Shown: piece after piece, positions 22,684 to 25,600 of the stretch | Position numbering within the stretch: position 1 is the stretch's first letter | How the letters are laid out: each line of letters starts with the position of its first letter | Assembly: GCF_965363235.1 (NCBI RefSeq) | Contig: NC_134850.1 | Coordinates: forward strand, 30,654,102 to 30,718,101 | Direction: 5' to 3' | Length of the DNA stretch: 64,000 bases | From: Mytilus galloprovincialis | Lineage: Eukaryota > Mollusca > Bivalvia > Mytilida > Mytilidae | The notes under the pieces: generated by a model | What the model was told of the DNA's origin: nothing | The model's database searches: none | What the model saw: the letters and a program-made list of their open reading frames with translations, nothing else | Program-made: the position numbers and the translations under genes

Positions 22684-25600
22684 TCACACATCGTCGATCT
22701 TTTCGTCGTCGCCATCATGATTATCATCGTCTTTGTGAATACCAACTGCCTGAGTTGGCCTAATGAAAAAACAAGCAAGAGCACTATACGATCGTTCACA
22801 TGTTTCAGGATGATTTTGCGGCGGTAAAAAATGCGTTACTTCAGTTTGTATTTTATTAATTTCAGCAGTTTGTTTTACTTGACTTGATCCTAGTTGTAGA
22901 GCTAGCCAATCGAATGCCTCTGTGATACCATCTCCGGTCAAGGCACTTATAGTGAATATATCTGGAACAAAAAAATAGATTATTGCTCTAGTAAATCATT
23001 TGAGTGAAAACATTAGTACAATAATAAATTAATATATATCCCTACCCCAAAAACATGTTTTTTTTTGTGTGCATGAGTTAGATATGTGGTGTATGTAGAC
23101 TCTTTTCATTTTAATATCCTCTCTCCTATCTTCAAGCCCGGGCTTTTTTTTTCATCTACCATCTTTTATGAAGTATTCCATAACCCTTCTCCCCTTTAAC
23201 AATCACATATCTCATTACTCCATTACCAAATGTACTTTTAAGCCCCAATCCCACTAGACCACGATCGCACCACGCTCACCGCGATCTAAAATAAATTTAT
23301 ATCGTGGTGAGGTCGCGGTATGAACGGCATGAAAATGTTAATTTTTGTTGCTTTCACGATGCTACTACGTCCTAATTACGCTTCTACAACGATCCCGCTA
23401 CGATTAAACCACGTTCTCACCGCGCTTATTCTGCGACCTCACAACGCTTATAAAGATCTTTCTACGCTCTTCACGCTCTCACTACGACCATACCACGAGT
23501 TATCCGATTGCAACACGATCGTACTGCGATTATAGCACGTTCTTACCACGATTATACTACGTTCATACCGCGATCTTACTACGTTATCAGCAATACCGTC
23601 AATATCGTGTTTCATATCAATATATATAGTTCCATTCCTTCTATTTCTGATTAAAACGGAGATTTCTCGGAAACAATACAGTCATGCCATCAAAATCTAC
23701 TAGAACACGTGGGCGTGGTGGTATGTTTGTGAGATCTCCCCCTTCCCCCCTATACCTCTAGCCAATGAAGAAAAGTAAACGCATAACAATACGCACATTA
23801 AACTTCAGTTCAAGAGAAGTCCGAGTCTGATGTCAGAAGATGTGGTTAAAGAAAATATTAAACAAAATGACAATAATACATAAATAACAACAGACTACTA
23901 GCAGTTAACTGACATGCCAGCTCCAATTAAACTGATACTATACACATAAGTAGTATAATACTTGTCATCAAGAGATGACCAATCAAACCTAAATTACAAC
24001 CTATTGCTGGTCCATAAAGCTCAAATGACGATATTTTAGTGAACGATAGCAGAGATGACACAGATGTGTCAATATATATAGGAAGATGTGGTATGAGTGC
24101 CAATGAGACAACTCGATCTCCATCAACGTAAAAATCTATAAAAGTAAACCATTATAGGCCAAGGTACGTCCTTTATTACGGAGCCTTGGCTCACACCGAA
24201 CAGAACGCTATAAAGGGCCCAAAAAATACTAATGTTAAACCATTTAAACGAGAAAAACCAACGGTCTAATCTATATAAAAACGAGAAGCATGGTTGAGCC
24301 GTTAGAGCAAATGGATAAATACATTCAGACAAACAAAATCTAGGGAGTTTTTTTTATACATTTTATGTGAAAATTACAATAGAAATGATGGTCGTAGTGT
24401 GAACGTAGTAAGTTCGTGAGAAGAGCGTGATAAGGACGGCAAGGGCGTGCTAGAATCGTACTATGGTCGTGAACAGCGTGGTAAAGTCGTAGTGGAAGCG
24501 TAGTTGGGTCGCAGTGAGAACGTGATGGTCGTAGTGAGGTCGTCATAACGTCGCTGTGAGATCGTAGCGCAATCTCTCCGAATAGAATCACGCTTTCGCT
24601 ACGTTCTCGCTACGATTGTACAGCGACCTTTGCGATCTTACTACGATCTTAGTGCGCTCTCACTACGCTTCTACTACGACCTGATTTCGCCACGACCACA
24701 CCACGATTGTTTTGAACATGTTCAAAGTTGTCCACGCTCTTCACGATCTTGAAGACCTCACCACGACCGTGGTACGACCTTACTGCGACCTACACGATCG
24801 TACCACGATCATCAATATTTGCATTTTTTTCCACAGATCGTAGTGCGATCGTGGCCTAGTGGGACTAGGGTATTAAATCAGCCGTGTCTTAACGGGTGCT
24901 ATATATACATTGATCCCAATTCAACATCATAATTTACATCTTAGTAAAGGTTCCCGATTCAACTAAACAACATAATTTTCATATTAGTAAAAACCTCCTA
25001 TTCAACTAAACAACATTACTTTCATCTTGATAGATGAATTGTGTTAGACAATTTGTATTTCCATTTTACATACGTCGGTGATTTTTAATTTCATTAAAAT
25101 ATAAAAAAGCGTAATACTTTATCTGCAGTCTGTACTTTGAGTTTGCTTTTAGCAATTATGAGTATATTTCATAAACATCTAAGATTGTTCTAGTTGTATC
25201 TGTGATATTTTTATTTTCCCTTATTACCGATATTTTCCTTTTTCTGATCTCATTTAATTGTATATGAAAGCATATTGTTACTCGGCTGATCGATAGTAAA
25301 ACATGGGGGAGGGTAGAGTCTTTGATATTTTTTTTACCACGCAACACATTGATGCGTTTTTCCATGTCATAAACCCTCGAGCTTTGGCCTATTCATTTGT
25401 TCGGACAACGTATAAATCCCAGTCCCCCTTTTAATCATATATACTTACTCCATCTTCGCTTTAAATTATTTAAAGCCAAAGAATCAGATATCTCTTGAAG
25501 ACTCATTCCATCTTCAATGTCTGATTTATTTGCAAGGAATAAGAACACTGCATCTTTGAGATCTTCAGATTTTAATGCTGGTTTTATGACGTCATATGTG

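What the first reader, a model, noticed from the sequence alone, without database searches (positions are those of the whole stretch)
23242..24872. Transposon arms built from a helically phased 11-bp CpG repeat
In the arms CG dinucleotides recur mostly every 11 bp for hundreds of bases (consensus near ACGATCTTACT; for example consecutive steps of 11 between about 23470 and 23580), inverted in part of the right arm. This is close to one turn of DNA, so all sites would face the same side. CpG is retained despite the tendency of methylated CpG to decay. Such an array could be a cooperative protein-binding or nucleosome-phasing surface. I do not know a described family with this design.
Basis: partly seen in the sequence, partly recalled or inferred. 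Interest (0 to 1): 0.75.

Follow-up and report, generated by a model that had tools for sequence, protein, structure and literature searches.

The report
Mussel transposon with helix-phased CpG arms
A common mussel jumping gene carries long arms in which CG pairs recur about once per turn of the DNA helix, and most of its closer relatives in the same genome keep that rhythm although the letters between the CGs have changed, which suggests that a protein binds along one face of the arms.

Summary
Window 23241-24872 is a non-autonomous PIF/Harbinger transposon in a Mytilus-type mussel genome, flanked by TTA (TWA target, not TTAA). CG autocorrelation at lag 11 is 49 against 6.1 expected (z 18.9). 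Correction: steps of 11 are mixed with steps of 9, and the arms' spectral period is 10.3-10.65 bp, closer to a helix turn than 11 is. A potentially autonomous partner was found (L047, 5.4 kb): same tips and arms, a DDE_Tnp_4 transposase and a MADF/Myb-like protein. Related families (54-77% transposase identity) and one at 39% have other unit sequences and step mixtures, yet peak at 10.25-10.55; one family (61%) is not significant, and 8 of 8 more distant loci show no significant array. Between the two closest families 27 of 60 CG are kept against 150 of 831 other dinucleotides. Best reading: one-faced arrays of binding-site cores for the element's own MADF protein and/or transposase, needed in cis. 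Binding is not shown. Subterminal binding arrays are known in other transposons; helical phasing kept across families is the new part.

The parts
23238..23240 (.). left target-site copy TTA
   Evidence: sequence; 35 copies compared
23241..24872 (+). non-autonomous PIF/Harbinger element, tips AGCCCCAATCCCACTAGACCACGATCGC and (right, reverse complement) TACCCTAGTCCCACTAGGCCACGATCGC
   Evidence: inverted ends (with flank) 42 nt, 81% complementary
23262..23607 (+). left arm: CG array, steps of 11 and 9 bp, spectral peak about 10.6
23684..23725 (+). remnant of the start of the MADF gene (MPSKSTRTRGRGG against MPPRSTRTRGRGG in L047)
   Evidence: read; alignment of element 1-483 to L047 302-802
24061..24310 (+). 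inserted dispersed repeat (SINE-like by recall) in the middle of the element
   Evidence: 11 further alignments in the window
24393..24575 (-). right arm, inner part: CG array in inverted-repeat orientation, spectral peak 10.5
24585..24820 (+). right arm, outer part: CG array in the opposite orientation, able to form a hairpin with the inner part; the stretch 24585-24740 alone is only weakly periodic (peak 11.2)
24836..24872 (-). right terminal inverted repeat
24873..24875 (.). right target-site copy TTA

Best explanation
Shown: the window holds an internally deleted, non-autonomous member of a PIF/Harbinger family in a Mytilus-type mussel genome. A potentially autonomous relative (L047) has the same tips and arms and encodes a DDE_Tnp_4 transposase and a MADF (Myb/SANT-like) protein, each gene starting just inside one arm. 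Shown: the arms are arrays of CG cores whose average pitch is close to one helix turn, and this pitch recurs in related families whose unit sequences differ. Inferred: the CG core is the contact point of the element-encoded MADF protein, perhaps with the transposase. Many copies bind along one face of each arm and form a nucleoprotein arm that marks both ends, brings them together and loads the catalytic transposase. The same arrays lie upstream of both genes and may also let the protein regulate its own promoters. Non-autonomous copies keep both arms because they must be recognised in trans.
For: Partner: PF13359 at E 1.3e-26 and PF10545 MADF at 8e-9, with both arms aligned. In this superfamily the Myb-like protein of Harbinger3_DR binds a subterminal 9-bp motif and both proteins are needed for transposition (passages of PMC9710019 and PMC2836001). 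Phase: 9 of 10 arm segments, from five of six families, beat all 500 shuffles. Step order in the focal arms keeps phase better than shuffled orders in 6 of 7 (partly overlapping) segments (fractions 0.000 to 0.044; the seventh 0.463). Spacing kept while bases drift: A against B arms at 58% identity keep 27 of 60 CG against 150 of 831 other dinucleotides (p 5e-6). Autonomous arms against the consensus of 35 copies keep 77 of 86 CG against 646 of 919 others (p 8e-5), while singletons do not avoid CG (69 CG, 321 non-CG, against divergence 5 and 72, p 0.016). None of 50 tip pairs on two contigs is shorter than 1.2 kb, as expected if the arms are needed in cis.
Against: No binding, methylation or nucleosome data. 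Family C is not significant (14 of 200; 38 of 500; 11 of 100 for its second copy). Long gaps inside arrays are hardly in phase (R 0.22, p about 0.04, no better at 10.5 than at 10 or 11). Mean step in uninterrupted runs varies from 10.2 to 11.0, within a search range of 8-13 that is itself centred on 10.5. Variants shared by two or more of the 35 copies do not avoid CG either (21 CG, 93 non-CG; against singletons p 0.89), so selection is not visible within the non-autonomous set. B against D arms show no significant CG excess, A against C is borderline, and 7 within-family pairs show none. Aligning two CG arrays favours matching CG to CG, so the excess is partly built in. Families A, B and C share the 11/9 pattern and are not independent. 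Short elements with D-type tips have weak or no phase in 6 of 7.
Confidence: 0.6

Rival explanations
1. The arms are nucleosome-positioning or intrinsically bent DNA: CG faces out and A/T-rich steps face in at each turn, so arms wrap histones or bend and bring the ends together without a dedicated binder.
For: WW dinucleotides lie 4.2-6.5 bp from CG in the nine arm segments of six families tested, with substantial power in A (left arms), D and H. Period 10.25-10.65 is near that of nucleosomal DNA (recalled).
Against: In 7 of 10 segments CG is the most periodic of 10 dinucleotide classes and CG is the best kept one between A and B, which points to a specific core rather than general A/T-G/C alternation. 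In B, C and E the WW signal at the CG period is weak. In H, CC/GG is more periodic than CG, which fits this rival better.
Confidence: 0.2
2. The arms are ordinary degenerate minisatellites spread by slippage and unequal exchange; the pitch near 10.5 is chance plus common descent.
For: Units of 11, 10/11 and 21 bp are plausible tandem lengths; TRF calls short 20-22 bp arrays in the arms; families A-C share the pattern; C is not significant and long gaps are hardly phased; variants within the non-autonomous set do not avoid CG.
Against: Different step mixtures (11/9, 10/11, 8/13) give nearly the same period; order of steps in A keeps phase in 6 of 7 segments; CG is conserved beyond the rest between the autonomous arms and the non-autonomous consensus.
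Confidence: 0.17
3. The arms serve mainly as promoter or enhancer arrays for host or element transcription factors, with transposition using only the tips.
For: TATA-like boxes lie between each arm and each start codon in L047 (700-707 before ATG 765; minus strand 5177-5170 before ATG 5129; read).
Against: Copies without the genes have kept the length needed for both arms: no tip pair under 1.2 kb among 50 (perfect tips only, and 50 of 100 listed left tips found no partner there). The 35 copies compared were chosen for having both tips, so they do not count here.
Confidence: 0.12

Closest known systems
PIF/Harbinger transposons (Harbinger3_DR, Ping/mPing)
   Same: DDE_Tnp_4 transposase plus MADF/Myb-like second protein, TWA target duplication, non-autonomous deletion derivatives; a Myb-like protein binding a subterminal 9-bp motif is described for Harbinger3_DR (PMC9710019 passages)
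   Different: about 350 and 480 bp arms with dozens of CG cores in helical phase; plant members are described with 14-25 bp inverted repeats (PMC2213677 passages)
MtPH-A6-4 PIF/Harbinger elements of Medicago with 60-bp subterminal tandem repeats
   Same: same superfamily, subterminal tandem repeats that can lie in both ends in opposite orientation (PMC2213677 passages)
   Different: 60-bp unit with a triplicated AAACNNCTTATT motif; no CG phasing in the passages read
CACTA (En/Spm, Tgm) subterminal repeats bound by TNPA
   Same: reiterated direct and inverted short motifs in the ends, recognised by an element-encoded DNA-binding protein, acting in cis, diverging between subfamilies (PMC2613891 passages)
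   Different: other superfamily and termini; no statement of helical phasing in the passages read
Galileo and Foldback elements
   Same: long internally repetitive inverted repeats; three binding sites for the transposase THAP domain located in Galileo (PMC3688188 passages)
   Different: Galileo is in the P superfamily; few sites located; no CG array in the passages read

Membership tests
PIF/Harbinger | DDE_Tnp_4-type transposase | tested here: met
   L047:4125-5129:- matches PF13359 at 1.3e-26 over the full model, in the partner with the same tips and arms
PIF/Harbinger | second gene with MADF/Myb-like domain | tested here: met
   L047:762-1364 matches PF10545 at 8e-9; start of this gene remains in the window element
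PIF/Harbinger | 3-bp TWA target-site duplication | tested here: met
   32 of 35 copies have TWA on both sides, 22 of 35 identical, 10 are TTA/TAA mixed (2 of 37 pairings dropped: one mispaired, one from another subfamily)
PIF/Harbinger | terminal inverted repeats | tested here: met
   42 nt including flank, 81% complementary
PIF/Harbinger | mobilised by both proteins | not testable with these tools
   needs a transposition assay
piggyBac or other TTAA elements | TTAA target duplication | tested here: not met
   flanks are TTA/TAA trinucleotides outside the tips
Foldback-like elements | long internally repetitive inverted arms | tested here: met
   arms with repeats and internal inversion; a structural class, not a superfamily
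CACTA | CACTA termini and Tnp2 transposase | tested here: not met
   tips AGCCCC/TACCC; transposase is DDE_Tnp_4

The most novel reading that the evidence does not exclude
In a whole clade of animal Harbingers the ends are selected for a geometric rule rather than a sequence: one CG per helix turn over 30 or more turns, on which an element-encoded MADF protein polymerises into a one-faced, possibly methylation-sensitive filament. Motif and protein co-evolve between families while the pitch is held fixed.
Probability: 0.28. Interest if true: 0.8.

Novelty: new variant of a known kind. Interest (0 to 1): 0.6.

Why it matters
Long repetitive arms of DNA transposons have mostly unknown function. 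Here several families in one genome offer a natural experiment in which the unit sequence changed and the helical spacing largely did not, so the role of spacing can be tested directly. If confirmed, it gives a rule for recognising transposon ends and a route to how the MADF/Myb-like partner proteins of Harbingers, some of which became host genes (PMC9710019 passages), read DNA.

Tried and rejected
TTAA/piggyBac assignment: rejected, flanks are TWA. CpG retention against methylation decay: not supported, C-to-T is not raised at CpG. A strict 11-bp period: rejected for the main focal arrays, where R at 11 is 0.20-0.26 against 0.71-0.79 at 10.5; over the full left arm the best period is 10.65 (R 0.64; 0.45 at 10.5, 0.07 at 11); the outer part of the right arm is the exception. 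Long gaps in phase: tested, hardly. CG avoidance among shared variants of the non-autonomous copies: tested, none. More distant transposases (loci L074 to L081, 31-42% identity): no significant array in about 2.2 kb upstream (8 of 8), but their ends were not located, so absence is not proved. For family H the array lies beside the transposase in two copies (88.9% identical over that stretch), but the element ends were not found.

Arm segment limits were set by eye or by CG density, so their shuffle counts are somewhat generous (in one search, 1 of 200 shuffles reached L047 and L064, 14 of 200 L067, 0 of 200 the other six). scan without hand-set limits; one search covers 12 loci only.

Literature: eight answered searches listed no paper whose title or shown start of abstract describes helically phased CG arrays in transposon ends; the library is partial and supplements were not open. 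A bivalve transposon survey (PMC10294476, passages) mentions none in the passages shown.

Full report
What is there. The window lies in a 1.385-Gb genome. Mussel adhesive-protein decapeptide repeats match one 770-residue open frame on contig C4 (22 matches; query recalled), so it is a Mytilus-type mussel. The element runs from 23241 to 24872 with TTA on both sides. A first search gave 94 matching pieces from 40 scored of 7254 candidates, a lower bound. Tip patterns with up to 3 mismatches occur 1388 (left) and 1568 (right) times genome-wide, against 0 for the pattern read backwards. I fetched 38 regions besides the window copy and paired tips in 37 cases; loci with only one recognisable end (L022, L027, L036) or without a matching pair (L045) gave none. 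After dropping one mispairing and one member of another subfamily, 35 copies remain: 32 have TWA on both sides and 22 have identical flanks. This is the PIF/Harbinger target, not TTAA.

The observation. CG autocorrelation at lag 11 is 49 against 6.1 (z 18.9) for the element, carried by the two arms and absent from the middle. Steps are mostly 11 and 9 and hardly ever 10, so lags 20, 31 and 42 are strong too. The main focal arrays peak at 10.5-10.55, with R 0.71 to 0.79 at 10.5 against 0.20 to 0.26 at 11; the outer part of the window's right arm alone peaks at 11.2 and is weak. Shuffling the order of the steps lowers the phase coherence in 6 of 7 partly overlapping segments. Elsewhere in the 64 kb none of 311 overlapping windows with at least 10 CG exceeds power 7.2; element windows reach 14.7.

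The partner. Among the perfect-tip pairs listed on contigs C1 and C2, one of 5.4 kb (L047) carries an intact 334-residue reading frame matching DDE_Tnp_4 and a MADF exon. Its arms align to the window element at 83-84%, and the window element still holds the first codons of the MADF gene at 23684. L047 has a TATA-like box between each arm and the gene beside it (read by eye). The window element is thus an internal-deletion derivative within this family, though not of this very copy. Of 50 tip pairs (from 100 listed left tips and 68 right tips on those contigs; two left tips share one right tip) 44 span 1.2-2.1 kb, none is shorter and six are longer, four of these over 12 kb and doubtful as pairs. 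The arms together are about 0.83 kb, so derivatives lose the genes and keep room for both arms.

Between families. The L047 transposase finds 120 matches in the genome (120 of 426 candidates scored). I took DNA upstream of the transposase from 20 of them and from three further family E copies. Family B (75-77% identity) has units such as ACGTCCTTACT; D (54-56%) has TACGTTTTACT with 10/11 steps in both arms; E (54%) has TCGTAAAACACT with 10/11 steps and ends in GGGGGTA next to TTA exactly where homology between E copies stops; H (39%) has a 21-bp unit with CG at 8/13. Peaks over all ten segments are 10.25-10.65, and 9 of 10 segments (five of six families) beat all 500 shuffles; the exception is family C (61%), 38 of 500. 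Mean steps in uninterrupted runs range from 10.2 to 11.0. A transposase tree groups A-E (support 85/94), with H in a sister group that also holds two lineages (I and J) in which no array was seen. Eight of eight more distant loci, I and J included, show no significant array; of the other four loci in that scan, three are significant at 0 of 100 and family C is not, 11 of 100.

Selection. A against B arms align at 58% identity and keep 27 of 60 CG but 150 of 831 other dinucleotides. A against D keeps 18 of 64 against 97 of 791 (p 0.001); B against D shows no significant excess (13 of 65 against 117 of 789) and A against C is borderline (12 of 75 against 81 of 920, p 0.059); seven within-family pairs at 95-100% identity show none. 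Autonomous arms against the consensus of the 35 copies keep 77 of 86 CG against 646 of 919 others. Among the 35 copies, singletons fall on CG and other columns about equally (left 0.500 and 0.524 per column, right 0.344 and 0.351), and so do shared variants (0.139 and 0.140; 0.115 and 0.111). So CG is conserved between the autonomous and non-autonomous lineages and between A and B, but no selection is visible within the non-autonomous set. C-to-T is not raised at CpG.

Mechanism. In Harbingers the Myb-like protein binds a subterminal motif and the transposase depends on it (PMC9710019 and PMC2836001, passages). The simplest reading is that each CG core is such a site and that sites are kept on one face of the helix so that many protein copies can assemble side by side. 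Every step after the sequence anatomy is inference. The half-turn offset of A/T steps leaves bending or nucleosome wrapping as the main rival.

Novelty. Arrays of subterminal binding motifs exist in CACTA elements and Galileo (PMC2613891, PMC3688188; passages), and tandem repeats occur in the ends of a Medicago Harbinger (PMC2213677, passages). Eight answered literature searches listed nothing, by title and shown abstract, on CG pitch conserved at the helix repeat across transposon families. I call it a new variant of a known kind.

Noticed in passing
35 element copies (L001, L009-L046): Target-site copies are often mixed: 10 of 35 have TTA on one side and TAA on the other (8 of them TAA left, TTA right), more than simple duplication predicts; the middle base may be carried over from the donor site or altered at repair.
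   Followed up: partly
window 24061-24310: A repeat inside the element has 11 further alignments in the window and is probably a widespread mussel SINE-like repeat (name not checked).
   Followed up: partly
window 24711-24726; L047 5542-5557 (one base different); also in L064: Palindrome TTTGAACATGTTCAAA interrupts the CG array and is kept between families A and B; a second candidate protein site.
   Followed up: partly
G000 C2:5333062-5380989 and C2:5432027-5479946: Two left-right tip pairs about 47.9 kb apart repeat about 99 kb further on, which suggests a recent segmental duplication.
   Followed up: no
L088-L094: Short elements (about 0.4-0.8 kb) with family D tips and degenerate arms in which steps of 5 bp are frequent; one of seven clearly phased (L093, 1 of 200 shuffles).
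   Followed up: partly
L032 and L034: Two copies share nearly the same flanks on different contigs, so they seem to sit at the same point of another repeat.
   Followed up: no
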